The notes beneath the pieces are model-generated. The model was given only the letters and a program-made list of their open reading frames with translations, was not told where the DNA came from and made no database searches. DNA of 64,000 nt from a virus, in IMG/VR virus record IMGVR_UViG_3300044712_002681, positions 1 through 64,000 of that record, one strand, 5' to 3'. Of the stretch, positions 1,339 to 63,214 are shown piece after piece; the stretch's first letter is position 1, and each line of letters begins with the position of its first letter. The position numbers and the translations under genes are program-made.

Positions 1339-2532
1339 TTATTTGGTGAATTTTTTATTTTTATTATAAAATTCTAATAGATTAATTTTTTCTTGTTCAA
1401 CAAAAATATTAGTTTCTGGTTCTAAACTAAATCCACCTTTTCTTGAAATTATACCACGGGTCACATACGCATCTATATATTTTATATTTTCTTGTTTGGC
1501 TTTTTTTGTTCTATTGTGACCTTCTATAATATATAAATTGTTAGTTCTAATATCTTGACCAACTAAAATCGGTGAATGTGTTTTTATCTCTTTACCACTA
1601 ACTTTTTCAGTATTTATTAATTTATCAACTTCAACCTGTGTTAATTTTGGATATCCATAATATATTATTTTCGTTTCAAAATCTTTAAATGAATCACATT
1701 CATTAACAATGTCGACTAATTGATCATATATTTCGGATTGTAGTTTATAATTTTCATTTTTCAATACACCTTTATAATCATATTCACCATATTCACCACC
1801 TTTTTCAGTATTACAAAAACAACACATTGGGTCTAAATTTTCAATATCATATGTTCCACCTAACCATTTTGGTTTGATATGATCAACCGTCATTAATTCA
1901 AAATCTTTGGTATATAAATCAATATGAATCGCACCACTTCTATCTTTTGCTGCGATTAAATATTTACCTTCCCTTGGACATTTTACACATTTTAAACCTT
2001 TAAAAGCAAAAACTTTTAATCTTTTATGTCTAGAATATTTTGTTTGTAATTCTTCAAGTGGTAAAATTTTAATTGGTATATAATTGTGTCCTATTTTATT
2101 GGGAACTTCTATCATTTCACCTTCAAATGGTAAAAGTAATTTATGACCTTTTTTATCGTTTTCGATATCAAATTCAGTTTTTCGATCTATTTTATATTTA
2201 TCTATTATATCTTTGTATTTATAATTAAAAAATTTAATTGCTGAATAATTCCTATTATATTTAAAATCACTATATTTTTGTTGATATATTTTTTTAATAA
2301 TTGGTAATACATATGATTGCTTTGGTTCATTTTTTATCATTTTTAATTCAAAATAAAGAGCATTTGCATCCGGATTAATATTATTTTCTTTAAATTTATT
2401 GAACAATTCTTGTTCTATTAAATCATAATCTTCTTCGGTTAAGATGTCTTTGCTATTTTGTTTTAAAAACGCTGAACGATTAGCAAAATTTAGTCGATCT
2501 ATATAATTTTCATATTTTCTTAAATATTTCAT
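1339..2532 (-). CDS. N-tagged HNH endonuclease with ParB-like C-terminal part
   Basis: This 397-residue protein starts MKYLRKYENY, an N-tag with Tyr in place of Phe. A zinc-binding HNH nuclease core spans about residues 180-245: a CVKC knuckle (about 182), VDHIKPKWLGGTYDIENLD with the catalytic D-H pair (about 214), then PMCCFCNTEKG (about 239). This arrangement is typical of HNH nucleases that cut DNA. The C-terminal part contains PILVGQDIRTNNLYIIEGHNR, which resembles the ParB/Srx-type fold. A tag on a nuclease would fit packaging and injection for host DNA attack, but a free-standing homing endonuclease is the usual alternative. The C-terminus may be frameshifted. Confidence 0.75.
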   Translation of the reverse strand: MKYLRKYENYIDRLNFANRSAFLKQNSKDILTEEDYDLIEQELFNKFKENNINPDANALYFELKMIKNEPKQSYVLPIIKKIYQQKYSDFKYNRNYSAIKFFNYKYKDIIDKYKIDRKTEFDIENDKKGHKLLLPFEGEMIEVPNKIGHNYIPIKILPLEELQTKYSRHKRLKVFAFKGLKCVKCPREGKYLIAAKDRSGAIHIDLYTKDFELMTVDHIKPKWLGGTYDIENLDPMCCFCNTEKGGEYGEYDYKGVLKNENYKLQSEIYDQLVDIVNECDSFKDFETKIIYYGYPKLTQVEVDKLINTEKVSGKEIKTHSPILVGQDIRTNNLYIIEGHNRTKKAKQENIKYIDAYVTRGIISRKGGFSLEPETNIFVEQEKINLLEFYNKNKKFTK

Positions 2533-10326: not shown

Positions 10327-11514
10327 TTATAATAACTTTTTAAAATTTTCGATTTCTCGTTTCTTTATTTCTGCACCAAGTTCAGCTTTTTCAAATCCCA
10401 ATTTTTTTAATTCTTCAGCATTAATTGTTGTTTCATATTTTAAAAATGCTTTTAAATATTTATTATTGAAATTTATTAATTTTGCAAATTCTGATATTGT
10501 TTTATTATCAACATCATATCTGTTTTTTTCTTTATATAACAATTCCAATTTATCTAAATCTTCAACATATCTTTTTAACGATAATAAGAAACAAGCAGGT
10601 TTCCAATATTTACCAGGAACTTTAAATTCAGGTAATTTTATTTTTAGTGTTGATATGTCATTATTTCTGAATAATAATGCATATATTATCACTAAATTAA
10701 ATGTATTAATATTATTGATATTAATATTCAAATTTGGAAACATTTCATCAAATAATTCAAATTCATCCAATAAATGTAAATAATGATGTAATGAATTTAA
10801 ATCTTTATTAGATTTTGACCATTGGATAGCTTTTTCAAACTCTTCAATTATTCGTTCTTGTGACACATCATCAATTGAAGATATGTTTCTTAATCGTTTA
10901 TCATTTTGAATTGCTTCAATTGTCGTAGAGCTTATTTTAGACTGATTTCTAGCAGCAAACCTGATGGTACGCAAAATCCTAAGCCTATCTTCATTAAATC
11001 GTTCTGATGCGTTCCCAACAGCAGATATAATGTTATTATCAATATCATCAATACCACCAACCAAGTCTACAATTTCACCCTTATCTATATCATAATATAA
11101 GGCATTTTGTGTTAAATCTCTACGTTGTGAATCTGAATATATGTCCGCAGTATCAACATCCACTTTTTGATGATCACCTTTATTATCTCTACCACGAACT
11201 AAATCTTTTCTATATGATGCTATTTCAATACCTTCTGGTATATCTTTTGTAAAAACCCGAATTACACCAAACTGTTTACCCTGTAAATCAAAATTAGAAT
11301 AATTATTTTTTAAAATATCAATAATTTCATTTGGTTTGGCATTTGTAACCAAATCAATATCGTGTGGAATTTGATTCATTATAAAATCCCTAACAGCACC
11401 ACCACAAACAAATAATTCCTTATTATTTGATTTAAATATCGTATTTAAATCTAAAATATCTTTAGGTAGATTCATTTTCATTTTTTGAAAATCTTTAAAT
11501 CTTTTCATTTTCAT
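10327..11514 (-). CDS. cca: tRNA nucleotidyltransferase / poly(A) polymerase family
   Basis: Class II nucleotidyltransferase of the CCA-adding and poly(A) polymerase family, about 395 residues. Motifs: FVCGGAVRDFIMN (G-G-x-V-R-D), PHDIDLVTN (catalytic D-x-D), SQRRDLTQNAL (the R-R-D-L-T motif) and FNEDRLRILRTIRFAARN (E-D-x-x-R-I-L-R). The longest reading starts at 11541, but a TAnnTTTG box overlaps that ATG, so I place the start at MKMKRFKDFQ, which also looks like a degenerate N-tag. Such an enzyme would repair tRNA 3' ends after host or phage nuclease attack, or act on phage RNA. It is rare but known in large phages. Confidence 0.85.
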   Translation of the reverse strand: MKMKRFKDFQKMKMNLPKDILDLNTIFKSNNKELFVCGGAVRDFIMNQIPHDIDLVTNAKPNEIIDILKNNYSNFDLQGKQFGVIRVFTKDIPEGIEIASYRKDLVRGRDNKGDHQKVDVDTADIYSDSQRRDLTQNALYYDIDKGEIVDLVGGIDDIDNNIISAVGNASERFNEDRLRILRTIRFAARNQSKISSTTIEAIQNDKRLRNISSIDDVSQERIIEEFEKAIQWSKSNKDLNSLHHYLHLLDEFELFDEMFPNLNININNINTFNLVIIYALLFRNNDISTLKIKLPEFKVPGKYWKPACFLLSLKRYVEDLDKLELLYKEKNRYDVDNKTISEFAKLINFNNKYLKAFLKYETTINAEELKKLGFEKAELGAEIKKREIENFKKLL

Positions 11515-11538
11515 TTTCACACATTTTAAATAATTGCA

Positions 11539-11546
11539 CAAATATA
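11539..11546 (-). promoter_or_regulatory. Bacteroidetes-type promoter box TATATTTG
   Basis: TATATTTG on the minus strand, 25-32 bases upstream of the chosen start of the nucleotidyltransferase gene. It decides between the two possible starts. Confidence 0.6.
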
Positions 11547-13440: not shown

Positions 13441-13866
13441 TTATTTATTTTTCCCATCATCAAATTTTTTTAATCTTTTTATATCTTCTTTTAAAATATC
13501 ACTATGATATGTTATTAAAAAATTAATATCATTCTTTTTAAGATCATAGTATTCTTTAATTAGTTTAAGATCAGATGCAACAAAATCTGATTTTTGTTTA
13601 TTTTTTGTTTGTTTTGATTTCCACCACCAATCAGGAGTATCATTAGTGGTATTTCTAAATATTTTAAACCACACATCAATTGCTGAAGGTTTATCTATAT
13701 TTTTATTGTTGAAAAATTCTGCTTGTTTTAAATATTTAATTGCGAATTTTCGATTCAACATAAAAAAATTAGCTTCCTTTTCTTCATCAGTAACATATTG
13801 ATATTTTTCTTTTTCTTTATGTTTAAAGATGATATTTGATAGTGTAATAAAATCTATTTTTGCCAT
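13441..13866 (-). CDS. Clamp-loader small subunit, T4 gp62-like
   Basis: A 141-residue protein. The middle reads FFMLNRKFAIKYLKQAEFFN, then VWFKIFRN and PDWWWKSK. The end reads LIKEYYDLKKNDINFLITYHSDI. This order (F-x-x-N-R, helix, a short R/K-W-W-K segment, then a terminal helix pair) is what I remember for gp62 of T4-like phages and cyanophages. The family partners with gp44 to load the sliding clamp onto DNA. Recognition is from memory, not from an alignment. Its start overlaps the histidine kinase stop by 13 bases. gp44 is not in this window. Confidence 0.6.
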   Translation of the reverse strand: MAKIDFITLSNIIFKHKEKEKYQYVTDEEKEANFFMLNRKFAIKYLKQAEFFNNKNIDKPSAIDVWFKIFRNTTNDTPDWWWKSKQTKNKQKSDFVASDLKLIKEYYDLKKNDINFLITYHSDILKEDIKRLKKFDDGKNK

Positions 13867-15365
13867 ATTTTATTTAATATTTGTAACAATTTTTCTTTAT
13901 TTATTGGGTTTTGTATATGAAAATCAACATCATCCAATTTATGTTCAACTACACCATATTTATCGGATTTTGTAATAATTTTACAATCTTTTATTGTTTT
14001 TATATTTTCAATTATTTCTGATGTTTTCATATCAGGTAAATTTAAATCTAAGAATATTAGTCCAATTTTTTTATTTTGTTTTTTATATATTTGAATTCCA
14101 TCTTCACCTGTTGTTGCAGACAAAATATTAAAATTTAAAGAATTAATATACATACCTAATAACGAATAATTTACAGGCAATTCATCTATGATAAGTACAG
14201 TTTTTCCGACAAAATTTATTTTATTTTTATTTTCAATAATGTCGTGTTTTATTTCTTCAATTTTTAATTTAACGTAAAATGTTGTACCCATATTTAAAAC
14301 AGATTCAAACCATATTTCACCATCCAACATACCAATAATACTTTTTGATATAGATAATCCTAAACCTACACCTTTATATTTTTTTGTACTTGAACTATCA
14401 CATTGCCAAAATCTATCAAAAACTTTATTTTTTTTATCTAGTGGAATACCTATCCCAGTATCTTCAATTTTAAATGTTATAAAATTATCATCGGTAACAT
14501 ATGATATAGTAATGTGACCACTATCTGTAAATTTTATAGAATTGCTTATGATATTAAATAAAACTTGTTTTAATCTTAAATAATCTGATATAATTTTTTT
14601 ATCTGTCGTTTTAACAAATTCGATTTTTACAAAATCTAAATTTTTTTTATAATTTACATCAGTAAAAATATCAGATAATTCATCAAGAAGATCATTCACA
14701 TTAAATTTTTCATATAATAAATCAAATTCTTTACTTTCAATTCTAGAAAAATCTAAAATATTACTTAACAATTCATCTAAGTGTTTTGCGTTATAATTAA
14801 TTGATTTTACAAATCTTTCTGTTTGATCATTAAATTTTTCATTATTTAATAATAAATCGGAAAAACCAATAATCGCATTCATCGGTGTTCTTAATTCATG
14901 TGATATATTGGATAAAAAAATTGTTTTTATTGAATTACTTTCTTCTAATTTGGTTTTTAAATTGTCTATTTCATCTTCAATTTTGCGACTTCTTGTTACA
15001 TCACACAAATTCAATAATAAATATTTTACACTTGAATCAATATTAACAATTGGCGATATTATCAATTTATATATCCGATTTTTTATTTTTGTTTCGTTAA
15101 TAATTTGTTTGTTTGTAAATATTGATTCTAACATAATCATTCTAATGTTATCATATTCTTCTGATGTGACCACATCCGAAATTTTTTTATTGACCATATT
15201 AAGTTTGAAATGTTTAATATTATTTTCAGAACAATATAAAATTAAACCATCCTTTTCGACAACAAAAGAATACATTTCCGAATTATAAAAATTACAATTA
15301 ATCACATTAATAGTTTCATTATCATCTATAATAGTAATAATATTATTATTGTCCTTGATTATCAT
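13854..15365 (-). CDS. Hybrid sensor histidine kinase with receiver domain
   Basis: A 503-residue soluble protein with no membrane segment. Residues about 25-125 form a PAS-like sensor part, followed by a coiled coil (129-146). The dimerisation domain has FLSNISHELRTPMNAIIGFSD with phospho-acceptor His156. The ATPase domain keeps NIISNSIKFT (N box), FKIEDTGIGIP (G1), VFDRFWQCD (F box) and KGVGLGLSISK (G2). A receiver domain follows from about 385, with VLIIDE and LIFLDLNLPDM (phospho-acceptor Asp). All key residues are present, so it should be active. Its start overlaps the thymidine kinase end, and its stop overlaps the gp62 start. A phage-encoded hybrid kinase is very unusual. Confidence 0.9.
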   Translation of the reverse strand: MIIKDNNNIITIIDDNETINVINCNFYNSEMYSFVVEKDGLILYCSENNIKHFKLNMVNKKISDVVTSEEYDNIRMIMLESIFTNKQIINETKIKNRIYKLIISPIVNIDSSVKYLLLNLCDVTRSRKIEDEIDNLKTKLEESNSIKTIFLSNISHELRTPMNAIIGFSDLLLNNEKFNDQTERFVKSINYNAKHLDELLSNILDFSRIESKEFDLLYEKFNVNDLLDELSDIFTDVNYKKNLDFVKIEFVKTTDKKIISDYLRLKQVLFNIISNSIKFTDSGHITISYVTDDNFITFKIEDTGIGIPLDKKNKVFDRFWQCDSSSTKKYKGVGLGLSISKSIIGMLDGEIWFESVLNMGTTFYVKLKIEEIKHDIIENKNKINFVGKTVLIIDELPVNYSLLGMYINSLNFNILSATTGEDGIQIYKKQNKKIGLIFLDLNLPDMKTSEIIENIKTIKDCKIITKSDKYGVVEHKLDDVDFHIQNPINKEKLLQILNKIWQK

Positions 15366-25093: not shown

Positions 25094-25822
25094 TTAAATT
25101 AAATTATATTTTTCTGATTTTTTTAAAAATTGATATTCTTTATAAATTTTTGGGAAATTATCAATTATGTTTTTTTGATTTTCATCATTTAAATAATCAA
25201 AAAAATAATAGTTTGAAATATCAATTTTGTTTTTATTTTTTAGTAAAAGATTAATAATTTCCAAATTATTTTGAAATGCGGCAAAAACCAATGCTGTATC
25301 ACCATCATAATTTTTAATATTTAAATCTGCACCAGCATTTATTAATTCTTCAACAAATTCTAATTCACCTTCATTTGCACTATAAATTAATTTAGTATTT
25401 CCATCATCATCTTGCACATTCACATTTATTCCTCCCTTTATTAATACTTTTAATATATCTATATTATTACACCAATGTAATGCAGTATAATCATGATTAT
25501 CTTGAATATTTAAATCTGCACCAGCATTTATTAATTCAATGATAGTTTTCAATTCACCGTTTAATGTTGCTAACATTAATGCAGTTTTTCCCATTTTATC
25601 TTGAATGTTTAAATCTACTCCAGCATTTATTAATTCTTTTATAATATCTAATCTACCATAATATGCTGAAATTGATAATATAGATTTTCCTTCAGAATCT
25701 TGATAATTCAAATCCGATTTTGAAGATATTTTTATTAATTTTGTGATATAATTAATATTAATATCTTTATTTTTAATTATAGCATTAAATGCTTTATTTT
25801 CAAATAATTTCAAATATTTCAT
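25094..25822 (-). CDS. Doubly tagged ankyrin repeat protein
   Basis: A 242-residue protein starting MKYLKLFENKAFN and ending KKSEKYNLI. Between the tags lie about five ankyrin repeats: EGKSILSISAYYGRLDIIKE, MGKTALMLATLNGELKTIIE, HDYTALHWCNNIDILKVLIK, DGNTKLIYSANEGELEFVEE and DGDTALVFAAFQNNLEIINL. Each is followed by L-I-x-A/G-G-x-x-x-N-x-Q. Ankyrin repeats are protein-binding scaffolds and common in injected bacterial effectors. Here the protein overlaps the start of a tail gene by four bases and sits inside the tail module. A host-targeting cargo protein is the likeliest idea. Confidence 0.85.
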   Translation of the reverse strand: MKYLKLFENKAFNAIIKNKDININYITKLIKISSKSDLNYQDSEGKSILSISAYYGRLDIIKELINAGVDLNIQDKMGKTALMLATLNGELKTIIELINAGADLNIQDNHDYTALHWCNNIDILKVLIKGGINVNVQDDDGNTKLIYSANEGELEFVEELINAGADLNIKNYDGDTALVFAAFQNNLEIINLLLKNKNKIDISNYYFFDYLNDENQKNIIDNFPKIYKEYQFLKKSEKYNLI

Positions 25823-36693: not shown

Positions 36694-37905
36694 TTACAAA
36701 TGAATGTATTTCATAATTTCCACCATTTTAGGATCACCTATTGCTTTCCCTGGACTATCTGATAGTTTAACAACAGCAATACCGTTAATCATAGTAAGTT
36801 TAATTACCATATTCATTGGTTTATTTTTTCCACCATCACTGAGATTTTTAAAATCTGATGAAAAAAATGTACCAATACCAAAAGAACACCGAATTTTACC
36901 TTTACAATATTCAGCGATTTTTAATGCAGTTTCGACATTTAATCCATCACTAAAAATAATTGTTTTTGTTGTTGGATCAATACCTAATTTTTTATAATGT
37001 GCAATAATTTTATCAGTAAACAAATAAGGATCACCAGAATCATGCCGAACACCATCCCAAAGTTTGGCTTTTTCTAATGAAAAATCCTTTAAAAATGAAT
37101 CTAAACCATATGTGTCAGGTAACATTGTGCCTAATGCACCACGATATGTTTCTGCCCACCGTTCCATAAATATTTTGTTTGGATGATTAAGACTTTCTAA
37201 GGCTGCAACAGCACCAATAGCTTCGTGTGCGCAAGTACCTAAAACTTTAACATCATATTTCATCCCAAGATATGGATTACTTGTTCCAACAAAACCTTTA
37301 AAATTCTTCATTTCACGAACAACAATATCTTGTGTTTCAAAGTTGCGTCTACGTCTAGTTGAAAAATCAGCAAATAAACACCCAGCATCACTTAATGTCT
37401 TTGCTTTACTTATTGCTAATTCGGCTTGACCATCCATTGACCAATCCTTATTCATAAATTTAAAATATACTTCAGAAATAATTGCCATTAATGGTACTTC
37501 CCAAAGTATAGTGTCACGATATTTTCCTTTAATTTTAACACACAATTCACCATTATCAAGTAATGTTATATTAACTTGATTAGGATTAAAACGATATGAC
37601 GCTAGATATTGTAAATATGATATCGGTAGAAATGTCAAATTAGTTTTCATCCAATCATATTCTTTGTCAGTTAATCTTAATTTTGACATTAATTTTATTT
37701 GATGTAAAATTTCATCAACTGCATCTTGATTAAACACCATTGATTTATCCCGATTTGAAAATGTATATTCGGCATCAGCATCAGGATAATGTTGAATTGC
37801 CCAGTTTTGCATTGTATACTTATAAAGATCAGAATCTAAAACACTTCTAATAATACAATCAGTGTGTCCTAAAATTTGATTAACGGATTCTCTTGAATAA
37901 TTCAT
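36694..37905 (-). CDS. pncB: Nicotinate phosphoribosyltransferase
   Basis: A 403-residue, full-length enzyme that converts nicotinate and PRPP to nicotinate mononucleotide in NAD+ salvage. Diagnostic segments: LGTCAHEAIGAVAALESLNH (phospho-acceptor His), DFSTRRRRNFETQDIVVREM, RHDSGDPYLFTDKIIAHYKK and KTIIFSDGLNVETALKI (phosphate site). G+C is a little higher than in the surrounding tagged genes. It has its own TAnnTTTG promoter. With the nicotinamidase two genes away it would form a two-step route from nicotinamide to NaMN. Confidence 0.93.
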   Translation of the reverse strand: MNYSRESVNQILGHTDCIIRSVLDSDLYKYTMQNWAIQHYPDADAEYTFSNRDKSMVFNQDAVDEILHQIKLMSKLRLTDKEYDWMKTNLTFLPISYLQYLASYRFNPNQVNITLLDNGELCVKIKGKYRDTILWEVPLMAIISEVYFKFMNKDWSMDGQAELAISKAKTLSDAGCLFADFSTRRRRNFETQDIVVREMKNFKGFVGTSNPYLGMKYDVKVLGTCAHEAIGAVAALESLNHPNKIFMERWAETYRGALGTMLPDTYGLDSFLKDFSLEKAKLWDGVRHDSGDPYLFTDKIIAHYKKLGIDPTTKTIIFSDGLNVETALKIAEYCKGKIRCSFGIGTFFSSDFKNLSDGGKNKPMNMVIKLTMINGIAVVKLSDSPGKAIGDPKMVEIMKYIHL

Positions 37906-55162: not shown

Positions 55163-56377
55163 ATGAAAATAATTAAATATACATATAAGTTTAGATTAGT
55201 ACCAAATAATGATCAAATAAATCTATTAAGTAAACATTTTGGTTCTGTTAGATGGACTTATAATTATTTTTTGAATCAAAGAAAAAAAGAATATTTAAAT
55301 AATAAAAAAACATTAACATATAATAAACAATCTAGTTTTCTAACACAATTAAAGAAAGATAAAGAAACCGAATGGTTGAAAGAAATAAATTCACAGACAT
55401 TACAATATTCTTTAAAATGTCTAGATACTGCTTATCAATGTTTTTTTTCAGGAAAATCAAAATTTCCAAAATATAAATCGAAAAAAAATAAAAATTGTTT
55501 TACAATACCCCAATTTGTATCAGTAAAGAATAATAAACTTCATATACCAAAATTTAAAGATGGAATTGAAATGATAATGGAACGAAAAATAAGTGGTGTG
55601 GTTAAACGATCAACAATAAGTAAAACACCAACAGGCAAATATTTTGTAACAATTTTAACAGAACAAGAATATCAACCTGTTAGTAAAACAAACCAATCTG
55701 TAGGAATAGATTTAGGAATAAAAGATTTTTTAGTGTTATCTAATGATTCGAAAATCAAGAATCATAGATTTCTAAAACATTATGAAAAAAAATTAATTTT
55801 AAATCAAAAATATTTATCAAGAAAAACTAAAGGGTCAAATCGTTATGAAAAGCAAAAGATTAAAGTTGCTAGGATTTATGAAAAAATTACAAATTCACGG
55901 ATGGATTTAATTCATAAAACTACTACATCTTTGATAAAACAATTTGATACTATATATTTAGAAGACTTGAATGTGAAAGGAATGATGAAAAATCATAAAT
56001 TAGCAAAAGCTATTAGTGATGTTAGTTGGGGTAAATTCATAGATATTCTTGAATATAAAGCCAATTGGAATGATAAACAAGTCATTCGTATAGATAGATT
56101 TTTTCCTTCAAGTAAAACCTGTTCTAAATGTGGTTGGATTAATAATAATTTAACACTTAAAGATCGAAATTGGATTTGTCCAAAATGTGGTGAAAAACAT
56201 GATAGAGATTTTAATGCAGCAACAAATATCCTTAATGAAGGATATCGTAAAAATATATCAGATGGAACGTCTGATTACGAACGTGGAGCAAAAATAAGAC
56301 CATCCGATGGCATAAGCAATGAAACGTTTAAAGTGAAGGAACATTGTGTTCCCGAAACCACTACATTATTAGTGTAG
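55163..56377 (+). CDS. tnpB: TnpB, RNA-guided nuclease of an IS200/IS605 element
   Basis: A 404-residue TnpB (OrfB). YTYKFRLVPNNDQINLLSKH is the typical N-terminus. The RuvC-like active site is complete: VGIDLGIKDFLVLSND (Asp, about 182), IYLEDLNVKGM (Glu, about 267) and HDRDFNAATNIL (Asp, about 350). A CSKCGW...CPKCG zinc finger lies before the last Asp. TnpB uses an RNA from the element's right end to cut DNA and help keep the element. No TnpA gene is present, so movement would need a transposase in trans. It lies tail-to-tail with the tail protein gene. Confidence 0.92.
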   Translation: MKIIKYTYKFRLVPNNDQINLLSKHFGSVRWTYNYFLNQRKKEYLNNKKTLTYNKQSSFLTQLKKDKETEWLKEINSQTLQYSLKCLDTAYQCFFSGKSKFPKYKSKKNKNCFTIPQFVSVKNNKLHIPKFKDGIEMIMERKISGVVKRSTISKTPTGKYFVTILTEQEYQPVSKTNQSVGIDLGIKDFLVLSNDSKIKNHRFLKHYEKKLILNQKYLSRKTKGSNRYEKQKIKVARIYEKITNSRMDLIHKTTTSLIKQFDTIYLEDLNVKGMMKNHKLAKAISDVSWGKFIDILEYKANWNDKQVIRIDRFFPSSKTCSKCGWINNNLTLKDRNWICPKCGEKHDRDFNAATNILNEGYRKNISDGTSDYERGAKIRPSDGISNETFKVKEHCVPETTTLLV

Positions 56378-60651: not shown

Positions 60652-60948
60652 ATGTCAAAAATAAAAAAAGTTGAATATATTGAAGATGGTAAACTATATA
60701 AAACCCAATTTTTATATTGGTGTTTAGGTTGTGGATATGAACATGCATTTTCATTAAAAGAAAATGGTGGTTATCATATATTTAATATGGATTTAGAAAA
60801 TCCTACAGTTTCACCGTCATTATTACAAAATTTTGTGCCAGGTAAATTATGTCATTCATTTATTATAGATGGAAAAATTCAATATTTAAATGATTGTGAT
60901 CATAAATTAGCAGGTCAAATTATTGATATTCCAGAATATCCAATATAA
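60652..60948 (+). CDS. DUF6527-like zinc protein
   Basis: A 98-residue protein with FLYWCLGCGYEHAFSLKENG (C-x-x-C near a His), NPTVSPSLLQNFVPGKLCHS and DCDHKLAGQIIDIPEY. The pattern C-P/L-G-C...N-P-T-x-x-P-S...C-H-S...D-C-x-H-x-L-A-G-Q is what I recall of DUF6527, a small zinc protein frequent in phages of unknown function. It is not tagged. It is the first gene of the plus-strand block that continues with the tagged ART and kinase. Confidence 0.6.
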   Translation: MSKIKKVEYIEDGKLYKTQFLYWCLGCGYEHAFSLKENGGYHIFNMDLENPTVSPSLLQNFVPGKLCHSFIIDGKIQYLNDCDHKLAGQIIDIPEYPI

Positions 60949-60957
60949 AATGATTAT

Positions 60958-61782
60958 ATGATTACACAATTTAAAATTTTTGAATCTGAAAATGAAATAA
61001 CTGTGCCAGATGTTGCTTGGTTATATTTTTTACATTATTGTTATAAAGGTAAAATGAAAGTGGATGTATGGAAAACTGACACAAGAATGGATGGAATTTC
61101 TTGTCAAGAAGCTTTAAGTAAATTTGATTGTGTTAAAATAATAGATGGTAATTTTATATCAACAAAAGACTGCGAAAAAATAATTGACAAGTATTTTGGA
61201 TCTAAAACCTTTGATGAAGCAGTAAAATCACAAAAAAAATTAGAAAAATATGATACACCAACCACTACTTATGTTAACGTATTTGATCGTAAATATCCAA
61301 TAAGTAAAATTGCATATGAATTATTTATTAAATTTAAAAATCCAAATATTGACAAGGCTTTTGATAAAATACGAGAAATGATAATAATTCATTTTAATTC
61401 ACAGCGTTCGTTGAAAAATATTTTAGAAAAAATGTCAAAAATGAGACATATTGATAAATGGAATTATAAAACTGCATATAAAATGTTTGATGGAAATATT
61501 CCAGAAAAAATTATAATTTATAGGGGATTAAAAAATGATTATAATCCAAATTATAATTTAGAATATTCGTGTTGGACTACATCAATAAAGGAAGGTGAAA
61601 GATTTGCAAAATATTTATTTTCTGGTGGACGACAATTTAAGCCAAAATATTCAGATGATCCTACAATGTTAGTTGCGGAAGTAAATCTTGATGATATTGC
61701 AATATTTATTGGTGGGGATGAATCTGAAGTTATAATGAAAGGTGATGTTGAAATTAAAGAAATTATAAAAATAACAATATGA
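60958..61782 (+). CDS. N-tagged Alt-like ADP-ribosyltransferase
   Basis: A 274-residue protein starting MITQFKIFESENE, a clear N-tag. The C-terminal part has the R-S-E active-site triad of arginine-type ARTs: IIIYRGLKNDYN (R189), YSCWTTSIKEGERFAKYLFS (S-T-S-like, 206-209) and IAIFIGGDESEVIMKGDVEI (E-x-E at 255-257). The catalytic pair E-x-E indicates transfer to arginine. T4 Alt is likewise head-packaged, tagged with a short propeptide and injected to modify RNA polymerase. The N-terminal 110 residues are unassigned. It couples to the kinase gene by a four-base overlap. Confidence 0.7.
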   Translation: MITQFKIFESENEITVPDVAWLYFLHYCYKGKMKVDVWKTDTRMDGISCQEALSKFDCVKIIDGNFISTKDCEKIIDKYFGSKTFDEAVKSQKKLEKYDTPTTTYVNVFDRKYPISKIAYELFIKFKNPNIDKAFDKIREMIIIHFNSQRSLKNILEKMSKMRHIDKWNYKTAYKMFDGNIPEKIIIYRGLKNDYNPNYNLEYSCWTTSIKEGERFAKYLFSGGRQFKPKYSDDPTMLVAEVNLDDIAIFIGGDESEVIMKGDVEIKEIIKITI

Positions 61783-62291
61783 AATATTTAAAATATTTTG
61801 AAAATGAATTAATTTATAAAACCCATCGTGGTGAAATATATAAACACGATGATAAAATATTGAAAATTACAAAGGATGTTATTGAATATAATAATGCATT
61901 AATTTTGATTAATAATCCTTCTAAATATTTTATTAAATATTATTCAGCTAAAAAAATATCAGATGATAAATTCGAATTAATAATGGAAAAAATAATACCA
62001 TTAAATGATGATGAATCTGATATGGTTGATTTAATTCAAAATACATTAGGTATTGAAGAATATATGTTAGATGATAATAAAAGATATAATTTTATTAAAG
62101 AATTAAAAAATAATCCCGAATATTATGAAGATTTTTGTTCATTTAATGAAATAATAAATATGATTAATTTATTAAAAAAAATGTATATAGAAGCTAAATA
62201 TAGAAATATTAAATTGTATGATTTAAGAAGTTCAAATATAGGTAAAACTATTGATAATAATATAGTACATTTTGATTTGGGTGCAGGTTAA
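61779..62291 (+). CDS. N-tagged minimal protein-kinase-like protein
   Basis: A 170-residue protein starting MKYLKYFENELIYK. It shows a shortened kinase fold: THRGEIYKHDDKILKITK (N-lobe strands with Lys26/Lys29 as VAIK-like candidates), FELIMEKIIPL (hinge), and NIKLYDLRSSNIGK with D148 and N153 in the HRD-loop spacing, followed by IVHFDLGAG with D166-L167-G168 as the DFG equivalent. The protein ends directly after that motif, so the C-lobe is very short. It may be active as a small kinase or only bind ATP. It overlaps the ART gene by four bases and is followed by another tagged gene. Confidence 0.6.
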   Translation: MKYLKYFENELIYKTHRGEIYKHDDKILKITKDVIEYNNALILINNPSKYFIKYYSAKKISDDKFELIMEKIIPLNDDESDMVDLIQNTLGIEEYMLDDNKRYNFIKELKNNPEYYEDFCSFNEIINMINLLKKMYIEAKYRNIKLYDLRSSNIGKTIDNNIVHFDLGAG

Positions 62292-62305
62292 AAAAAATAA
62301 TAAAA

Positions 62306-63214
62306 ATGAAATATTTAAAATATTTTGAAAGTAAACAACGTGGTAATCTTTATCATATATTCGATTTAAAAAAATGTCATCACATTTTAAAAACAAATAC
62401 AATTGAATCATATAAGTTTACAAATATATCAACAACTAGAAATAAAATGATGAATGGTTATCTTGGTGATTCCCCTATATCAATATTTAAATTAGAATTA
62501 GATGGTGATAAATTAAGCAATAAATATAAAATAAAGCCAATTACGTATCCATCAACAGAAATTGGTATTGGTGGTGAAAGAAGACCTATTCGTTTAGAAG
62601 AATTTGAAGAAGTTATTTTAACTGATCAGATAAAAAATATAAATCAATATGTTAAAAAATTTATAATAATTAAATCACGGGTTGAAAGAATGATAGATTC
62701 CGGGTGGTTTGATAGTGATGGTGGATATTTTGATGATGAAGATTCAAAAAGAATTACATTACCTGAATTTTTAAAGAAAAATATAGCAAAAATAAAAGAA
62801 TTATTTGGTGATATTTATATTCAGGATGACACAAGAATAATTAAAGATGATCAATGGTTAGAAAATATTATAAATCATCCAATTAAGCAAATAAATCATG
62901 GGTATTGTTTATATTGGAGAGGATATAAAAAATCACCAAATTTCAATCGTGGTGTTATTGATGATGTTCAACCATTCGATAAAAGAAATAAAAAAATTGA
63001 TAAATTGGTCATTGGATGGGATTATAATAATCTATATTTAAGTAAAAATAATAAATTTGATAATTTGCCAAAAGCTCGAGATAATTATAATTTGTATTCA
63101 TTTGATTTTGAATACGAACCAGTTGATATTATTAGTGAAACAGTTGATAGTGTTCATATAAAAAAAGGGTATTTGGGTAATATTGATTTGATTATAAAAA
63201 AGAAAATATTTTAA
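62306..63214 (+). CDS. N-tagged ART-like protein, 302 residues
   Basis: Starts MKYLKYFESKQRGNLYHIFD. The first 110 residues after the tag resemble an H-Y-E-type ADP-ribosyltransferase: NLYHIFDLKKCHHILKTNTI (His17), FTNISTTRNKMMNGYLGDSP (S-T-T-R), SIFKLELDGDKLSNKYKIKP and IRLEEFEEVILTDQIKNI (Glu 101-102). The rest (about 120-302) is unassigned, with many aromatic and Asp residues. Together with the two preceding genes it forms a cluster of tagged, enzyme-like proteins. The stop overlaps the decayed gene's start by one base. Confidence 0.5.
   Translation: MKYLKYFESKQRGNLYHIFDLKKCHHILKTNTIESYKFTNISTTRNKMMNGYLGDSPISIFKLELDGDKLSNKYKIKPITYPSTEIGIGGERRPIRLEEFEEVILTDQIKNINQYVKKFIIIKSRVERMIDSGWFDSDGGYFDDEDSKRITLPEFLKKNIAKIKELFGDIYIQDDTRIIKDDQWLENIINHPIKQINHGYCLYWRGYKKSPNFNRGVIDDVQPFDKRNKKIDKLVIGWDYNNLYLSKNNKFDNLPKARDNYNLYSFDFEYEPVDIISETVDSVHIKKGYLGNIDLIIKKKIF

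What the first reader, a model, noticed from the sequence alone, without database searches (positions are those of the whole stretch)
60958..63214. Cluster of tagged enzyme-like proteins: ART, minimal kinase, ART-like
Three adjacent, tightly coupled genes all carry the N-tag and show features of protein-modifying enzymes: R-S-E type ART with E-x-E, a kinase with D-x4-N and D-L-G at correct spacing but ending right after it, and an H-Y-E ART-like protein. T4 Alt gives the precedent for an injected ART; an injected kinase with the same tag would be new to me.
Basis: partly seen in the sequence, partly recalled or inferred. Interest (0 to 1): 0.85.

Follow-up and report, generated by a model that had tools for sequence, protein, structure and literature searches.

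The report
Phage operon of tagged injected-effector candidates
A large bacterial virus carries three neighbouring genes whose products share a short 'packing label' and look like enzymes it could carry in its particle and inject to modify host molecules: two ADP-ribosyltransferases and an unusually short protein kinase of a divergent family that in related viruses is fused to an ADP-ribosyltransferase.

Summary
The three genes are exactly where stated. The N-tag is real: 18 of 81 gene calls in the window carry it, against about 1.3% of random starts. The third protein has an ADP-ribosyltransferase (ART) fold nearest DarT and Tpt1/KptA. The middle protein has a kinase fold: confident N-lobe, all 50 listed Foldseek matches kinase-like. 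It belongs to a family found in about 17 other viral loci; four of these fuse the kinase to an ART. The first protein rests on motif order only (R-S-E, as in T4 ModA/ModB). Virion packaging is inferred. Relatives of the third protein in phages Lu11, HRDY3 and Slickus01 each carry a different, phage-specific N-tag shared with neighbouring genes, which is how a delivery label should behave. Several tagged jumbo phages encode a T4-type prohead protease. C-lobe-less kinases in injected 'polyvalent' phage proteins were predicted in 2017, so the idea is not new in kind. This family differs: Pfam Kinase-PolyVal does not match it, and the conserved His is absent. There is no activity or virion evidence.

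The parts
60652..60948 (+). DUF6527-family small protein, untagged, first gene of the same-strand run
   Evidence: Pfam PF20137 E=2.3e-8 over cut-off; PHROG 3362 E=5e-23; ends 10 bases before ART1
60958..61782 (+). ART1: candidate R-S-E ADP-ribosyltransferase, tag MITQFKIFE; R189, S204-S209, E255/E257
   Evidence: motif order found only in ART1 and T4 Mod-family proteins among 2,065 ORFs, 0 in 10,325 shuffles, pattern chosen after the fact; no family or PDB match
61779..62291 (+). KIN: C-lobe-less kinase-fold protein, tag MKYLKYFE; K29, E36, D148, N153, D166; degenerate glycine loop
   Evidence: family alignment, PDB profile hits nearly all protein kinases, AlphaFold2 model and fold searches
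62306..63214 (+). ART2: DarT/Tpt1-like ART-fold domain (residues about 11-180) with tag MKYLKYFE; H17, S42-R45, E102; C-terminal 194-302 unmodelled
   Evidence: AlphaFold2 core pLDDT mostly 75-94, Foldseek and VIA matches; family members in other phages
60958..60984 (+). N-tag of ART1
61779..61802 (+). N-tag of KIN
62306..62329 (+). N-tag of ART2

Best explanation
The operon encodes three early-acting effectors that the phage packs into its head by a short N-terminal targeting sequence, one that works like the capsid-targeting sequence of T4 internal proteins and Alt, and ejects into the host with its DNA. There the two NAD+-dependent ART-fold enzymes attach ADP-ribose to host macromolecules, and the compact kinase-fold enzyme phosphorylates a host target. 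Together they redirect or disarm the host before phage genes are expressed. Likely targets: protein for ART1; nucleic acid or protein for ART2. Shown here: the tag and its enrichment, the operon, the kinase and ART2 folds, the kinase-ART fusions in relatives, and the swapping of tags between phages that share the ART2 payload. Inferred: that the tag means packaging, that ejection follows, that the enzymes are active, and what they act on.
For: Tag enrichment at the protein level, and 272 distinct tagged proteins across tagged phages. ART2 homologues in Slickus01, HRDY3 and Lu11 carry a different N-tag that is shared with clustered neighbours and exclusive to each phage or phage pair by pattern (5, 4 and 5 copies; zero in the unrelated phages and in reversed-pattern controls). 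Other ART2 homologues begin MKILFEEFILES and MKRIKRFESYISES, like T4 internal-protein starts. Peptidase_S77 (T4 gp21 type) exceeds its cut-off in 10 of 37 phages searched, including tagged G078, G073, G085 and G030. In G073 and G078 it lies beside a capsid protein with a T4-gp23-like N-terminal region, and in G073 it is fused to a repeat rich in [LI]-A-E sites. Kinase domains are fused to ARTs in L001 and, with ART-PolyVal over cut-off, in L163, L173 and L175. Fold evidence. Literature: T4 capsid-targeting sequences (PMC5694885), packaged ARTs (PMC9503650), injected kinase and ART domains (PMC5512222).
Against: No virion proteome or activity data. The window's own 71-kb fragment shows no prohead protease. 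T4-type sites are [LI]-x-E, but only some window tags fit (KIFE and KLFE do; KYFE and KTFE do not). The KIN glycine loop is degenerate (only G18 kept), so it could be a pseudokinase. The C-terminal part of its model has pLDDT below 50. ART1 has no statistical homology support.
Confidence: 0.6

Rival explanations
1. The three proteins are effectors made inside the cell early in infection, not packaged. The tag sends them to a place in the infected cell (phage replication compartment, membrane or a phage complex) or stabilises them.
For: The tag is short, not always at a T4-type cleavage site, and the fragment shows no prohead protease. Tagged proteins are very many and diverse: 272 distinct ones, median 142 aa, including an HNH endonuclease and an ankyrin-repeat protein in the window.
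Against: ART2 homologues in unrelated jumbo phages carry different tags shared with local clusters. Some tags resemble T4 internal-protein starts. T4-type protease and capsid genes occur in tagged phages. Kinase and ART domains are typical of predicted injected proteins (PMC5512222).
Confidence: 0.25
2. KIN is a pseudokinase: an ATP-binding or purely structural partner that regulates or holds the neighbouring ARTs, as the fused kinase-ART proteins would allow.
For: The glycine loop is lost in KIN (YKTHRGEIY against GKGDFGTAY). Many tandem copies elsewhere have D-x5-N instead of D-x4-N. Kinase and ART are fused or adjacent.
Against: K29, E36, D148, N153 and D166 are all kept in KIN and in its closest relatives. 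In relatives such as L001, L122, L163 and L166 the glycine loop is also intact.
Confidence: 0.35
3. ART2 acts on nucleic acid (RNA end processing or DNA/RNA ADP-ribosylation) and is a repair or counter-defence enzyme rather than a protein modifier.
For: Nearest folds are Tpt1/KptA and DarT. One homologue carries a second, KptA-like domain with hits to phage 'RNA 2'-phosphotransferase'. The same phage encodes a CCA-adding-type polymerase and an RNA-ligase-like protein, and polyvalent relatives of KIN contain poly(A)-polymerase domains.
Against: A shared fold does not show the substrate. Tpt1-type H-H-h residues are not conserved in the family. VIA also lists protein-modifying ARTs at lower Z.
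Confidence: 0.4
4. ART1 is not an ART: its R-S-E motifs are coincidental.
For: No Pfam, PHROG, PDB or profile-profile match.
Against: Motifs are collinear and spaced as in the T4 Mod family. The combined pattern is found in no other of 2,065 ORFs and in no shuffle, though the pattern was defined with these sequences in view.
Confidence: 0.15

Closest known systems
Polyvalent-protein kinases of phages (Pfam PF18762 Kinase-PolyVal; Iyer et al. 2017, PMC5512222)
   Same: Kinase core without the C-terminal lobe, in phage proteins predicted to be injected, alongside ART domains; stand-alone versions known in Bacteroidetes
   Different: PF18762 finds none of 15 records holding our family. The His before the catalytic Asp is not conserved here. 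KIN is a short single-domain protein with an N-tag. Other members come as up to three tandem copies.
T4 Alt and T4 internal proteins (capsid-targeting sequence)
   Same: Short N-terminal sequence, hydrophobic residues and a Glu, on packaged and injected proteins including an ART; T4-type protease occurs in tagged relatives
   Different: Consensus M-K-Y-L-K-x-F-E rather than T4's (T4 Alt is cut at ITE-6, PMC5694885); dozens of tagged proteins; packaging not shown
T4 ModA/ModB-type R-S-E ARTs
   Same: Order YRG, S-x-x-TTS, FA, E-x-E in ART1
   Different: No detectable overall similarity; N-terminal half of ART1 unrelated
DarT and Tpt1/KptA (ART superfamily)
   Same: Fold of ART2: VIA Z 8.6, rmsd 3.6, 133 residues with DarT; Z 9.5, rmsd 3.0, 112 residues with yeast Tpt1
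   Different: About 10% identity; own motif set H..S-x-T-R..E-x-E-E; N-tag; substrate unknown; no DarG-like partner seen
ART-PolyVal (PF18760)
   Same: ART family fused to the KIN-type kinase domain in L163, L173 and L175
   Different: Neither window ART matches it

Membership tests
Protein-kinase-like fold (KIN) | N-lobe b1-b2-b3-aC-b4-b5 with b3 Lys and aC Glu | tested here: met
   Model strands/helix in this order, pLDDT about 65-85; all 50 listed Foldseek rows are kinase-like; K29 and E36 conserved
Protein-kinase-like fold (KIN) | Catalytic loop D-x4-N and DFG-type Asp | tested here: met
   D148, N153 and D166 invariant; D, N and D invariant columns
Protein-kinase-like fold (KIN) | Glycine-rich loop | tested here: inconclusive
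   Intact in relatives, only G18 left in KIN
Protein-kinase-like fold (KIN) | Phosphotransfer activity | not testable with these tools
   needs protein
Kinase-PolyVal (PF18762) | Match to the family HMM | tested here: not met
   0 of 15 records at E<=10
Kinase-PolyVal (PF18762) | Loss of the C-terminal lobe | tested here: met
   KIN and L122 stop right after the DFG-type motif; others lead into another domain
Kinase-PolyVal (PF18762) | Conserved His before the catalytic Asp, with insert | tested here: not met
   No conserved His
ART superfamily (ART2) | ART fold | tested here: met
   Rows 1-27 are ART-superfamily or CC0527; top Foldseek rows Tpt1 and DarT
H-Y-[EDQ] ART clade (ART2) | His in strand 1, Tyr in strand 2, acidic/Gln in strand 5 | tested here: not met
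   His in 5 of 6 and Glu invariant; no conserved strand-2 Tyr
R-S-E ART clade (ART1) | Arg, S-T-S and E-x-E in order | tested here: met
   R189, S204-S209, E255-S-E257
R-S-E ART clade (ART1) | Match to ADPrib_exo_Tox (PF03496) or profile similarity to the T4 Mod family | tested here: inconclusive
   No match; single divergent sequence
R-S-E ART clade (ART1) | ART fold | not tested
T4-type capsid-targeted proteins | Conserved N-terminal sequence on several proteins of the phage | tested here: met
   18 of 81 genes
T4-type capsid-targeted proteins | Cleavage site [LI]-x-E at the end of the tag | tested here: inconclusive
   KIFE and KLFE tags fit, KYFE and KTFE do not
T4-type capsid-targeted proteins | gp21-type prohead protease in the genome | tested here: inconclusive
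   Not found in the 71-kb fragment; present in several tagged phages
T4-type capsid-targeted proteins | Presence in the virion | not testable with these tools
   needs mass spectrometry

The most novel reading that the evidence does not exclude
Many large phages use phage-specific N-terminal address labels to load whole sets of small effectors into the head. The same payload families (DarT/Tpt1-like ART, C-lobe-less kinase) move between phages and acquire the local label. The window phage carries, as separate labelled genes, the kinase, ART and CCA-polymerase modules that other phages carry fused in giant polyvalent proteins, so labels let one read off a phage's injected arsenal from sequence.
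Probability: 0.45. Interest if true: 0.8.

Novelty: new variant of a known kind. Interest (0 to 1): 0.58.

Why it matters
If the tag is a packing label, a simple sequence rule lists the proteins a jumbo phage injects. That makes the question of what enters the cell before any phage gene is expressed directly testable by virion mass spectrometry. It would add an injected kinase-fold enzyme and a DarT/Tpt1-like ART family to the arsenal, and a portable tag for loading proteins into phage heads.

Tried and rejected
One search used a poorly chosen DNA pattern and is uninformative beyond naming the record. Single-sequence searches of viral contigs for ART1, ART2 and the fusion protein found no new relatives; alignments and the tag pattern did. 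The first weak Alishewanella hit to ART2 (locus L139) proved unrelated; a different Slickus01 gene is the true relative. Weak Pfam hits for the window proteins (HEPN, L19e, MsrA_helical) are below cut-off and rejected as chance. Kinase-PolyVal, ADPrib_exo_Tox and a T4 Mod-family profile comparison gave no match. A scan of bacterial genomes with the kinase alignment found none, but only one peptide pattern was used. No paper in the library prints the tag sequences. A DNA-level or translation-leader explanation of the tag was considered and set aside because codon usage inside the tag broadly follows background.

Full report
WHAT IS THERE. The window is part of a 71,156-base IMG/VR virus record, 24% G+C. 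At its right end, between a 1,401-aa gene on the minus strand and collagen-like/fibre genes on the plus strand, lies a same-strand run: a DUF6527 gene (60652-60948), ART1 (60958-61782), KIN (61779-62291) and ART2 (62306-63214). ART1 and KIN overlap by 4 bases and KIN and ART2 are 14 bases apart. None of the three matches Pfam or PHROGs with a credible score.

THE TAG. A strict tag pattern occurs in 18 of 81 gene calls, against 1 of 262 internal methionines and 1.3% of random start positions. Tag codons broadly follow background usage, with some A-rich preference at I, T and L, while hydrophobic residues interchange (L/I/F), so the sequence is conserved as protein. The loci were fetched with this pattern, so the consensus is partly built in; the window count is not.

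WHY THE TAG MAY MEAN PACKAGING. T4 internal proteins and Alt carry short N-terminal capsid-targeting sequences removed by the gp21 protease (PMC5694885). Three observations point the same way here. First, ART2 homologues elsewhere start with sequences much like T4's: MKILFEEFILES in G027, MKRIKRFESYISES in G078; that MKTYQEFIAE is the T4 internal-protein start is my own knowledge. Second, in Slickus01, HRDY3 and Lu11 the ART2 homologues start with other tags (LYESLLEE, MEMMLALAG, MKIQLAVAG). Each tag is shared with neighbouring genes and clustered: 5, 4 and 5 copies, with none in the unrelated phages and none in reversed-pattern controls (HRDY3 and Lu11 share one loose pattern but use MEM and MKI starts respectively). 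The payload is shared and the label is local. Third, Peptidase_S77 exceeds its cut-off in 10 of 37 phages searched. In G073 and G078 it lies beside a capsid protein that resembles T4 gp23 by eye and has a YHS[IL]NE motif. In G073 it is fused to a repeat full of [LI]-A-E. Against: the window's fragment shows no such protease, and only some of its tags end in [LI]-x-E.

THE KINASE. The profile of three relatives finds PDB chains that are almost all protein kinases, aligned in register with the catalytic loop, though with E-values of 0.014 and worse. The AlphaFold2 model, built on only three sequences, has a kinase N-lobe in the right order (pLDDT about 65-85) and a poor C-terminal part. All 50 listed Foldseek rows are protein kinases or aminoglycoside kinases; the best E-value is 0.0015. 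VIA gives Z up to 7.6, which alone would be only suggestive. A later scan found 20 loci. Domain parsing gives 34 domain copies in 18 proteins, many as two or three tandem copies in proteins of 700-1,900 aa. KIN and L122 stop straight after the DFG-type motif; L166 and L181 end shortly after. L001 continues into an ART-like domain related to an annotated phage ART. L163, L173 and L175 carry ART-PolyVal over its cut-off, and others carry poly(A)-polymerase domains. KIN keeps K29, E36, D148, N153 and D166 but has lost most of the glycine loop.

ART2. With six family members in the alignment the model's core (about 11-180) is confident. Foldseek's leading rows are Tpt1/KptA and DarT, and VIA lists Tpt1 (Z 9.5, 112 residues), DarT (Z 8.7 and 8.6, 133-137 residues) and then other ARTs. 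A shared fold does not give the substrate. The nearest neighbours modify RNA or DNA, so 'protein-modifying' is open. BFVD finds similar models in Bacillus phage SP-15 and Agrobacterium phage Atu_ph07. G078 carries one homologue with a second, KptA-like domain. Slickus01 has at least three ART2-like paralogues side by side.

ART1. YR189G, S204-x-x-TTS, FA and E255-S-E257 follow the R-S-E order. The combined pattern is found in ART1 and in six T4 Mod-family proteins and nowhere else in 2,065 ORFs, nor in shuffles. The pattern was drawn up after seeing both, so this is support, not proof. Profile and family tests are negative.

MECHANISM. Most likely the tag loads these enzymes into the head, they are ejected with the DNA, and they modify host macromolecules with ADP-ribose and phosphate at the start of infection. 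Shown: operon, tag, two folds, kinase-ART linkage, tag swapping. Inferred: packaging, ejection, activity, targets. The phage also encodes a nicotinate/nicotinamide phosphoribosyltransferase, which could help maintain NAD+; that link is inference.

KNOWN OR NEW. Packaged ARTs are well established in concept (PMC9503650). Iyer et al. 2017 (PMC5512222) described C-lobe-less kinases in polyvalent phage proteins predicted to be injected. So this is a new variant: a divergent family that the Kinase-PolyVal model does not recognise, without its conserved His, and present here as a small labelled stand-alone gene beside two ARTs. The most interesting reading is that phage-specific labels mark whole injected arsenals.

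Noticed in passing
window 36694-37905 (-): Nicotinate/nicotinamide phosphoribosyltransferase (Pfam NAPRTase E=4.8e-61, PHROG 448): NAD+ salvage gene in the same phage as the ARTs.
   Followed up: partly
window 10327-11541 (-): CCA-adding/poly(A)-polymerase-type protein whose likely in-frame start is MKMKRFKDFQ, a tag-like variant. The same domain is fused to KIN-type kinases in L169, L176, L178 and L179.
   Followed up: partly
window 25094-25822 (-) and 1339-2532 (-): Tagged ankyrin-repeat protein and tagged HNH endonuclease.
   Followed up: no
window 55163-56377 (+): IS605 OrfB/TnpB-type protein with Cas12f1-like TNB domain.
   Followed up: no
window 13854-15365 (-): Hybrid histidine kinase (HisKA, HATPase, receiver) in a phage.
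   Followed up: no
L182 (Alishewanella phage Slickus01, record 87.3-91.1 kb): At least three neighbouring ART2-like genes, starting with LYESLLEE or LYDSLLEE tags.
   Followed up: partly
L199 and L200 (G073, G078): S77 prohead protease in one ~700-aa ORF beside the capsid gene; in G073 the protease is followed by a scaffold-like repeat with many [LI]-A-E sites.
   Followed up: partly
L167-L179: Giant phage proteins with two or three tandem kinase-like domains plus GNAT, ART or poly(A)-polymerase domains; many copies have D-x5-N and may be pseudokinases.
   Followed up: partly
L131, L133 (G005, G073): Families of tagged leucine-rich-like repeat proteins repeated side by side.
   Followed up: no
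window 60652-60948 (+): Untagged DUF6527 gene directly upstream of the tagged trio.
   Followed up: no
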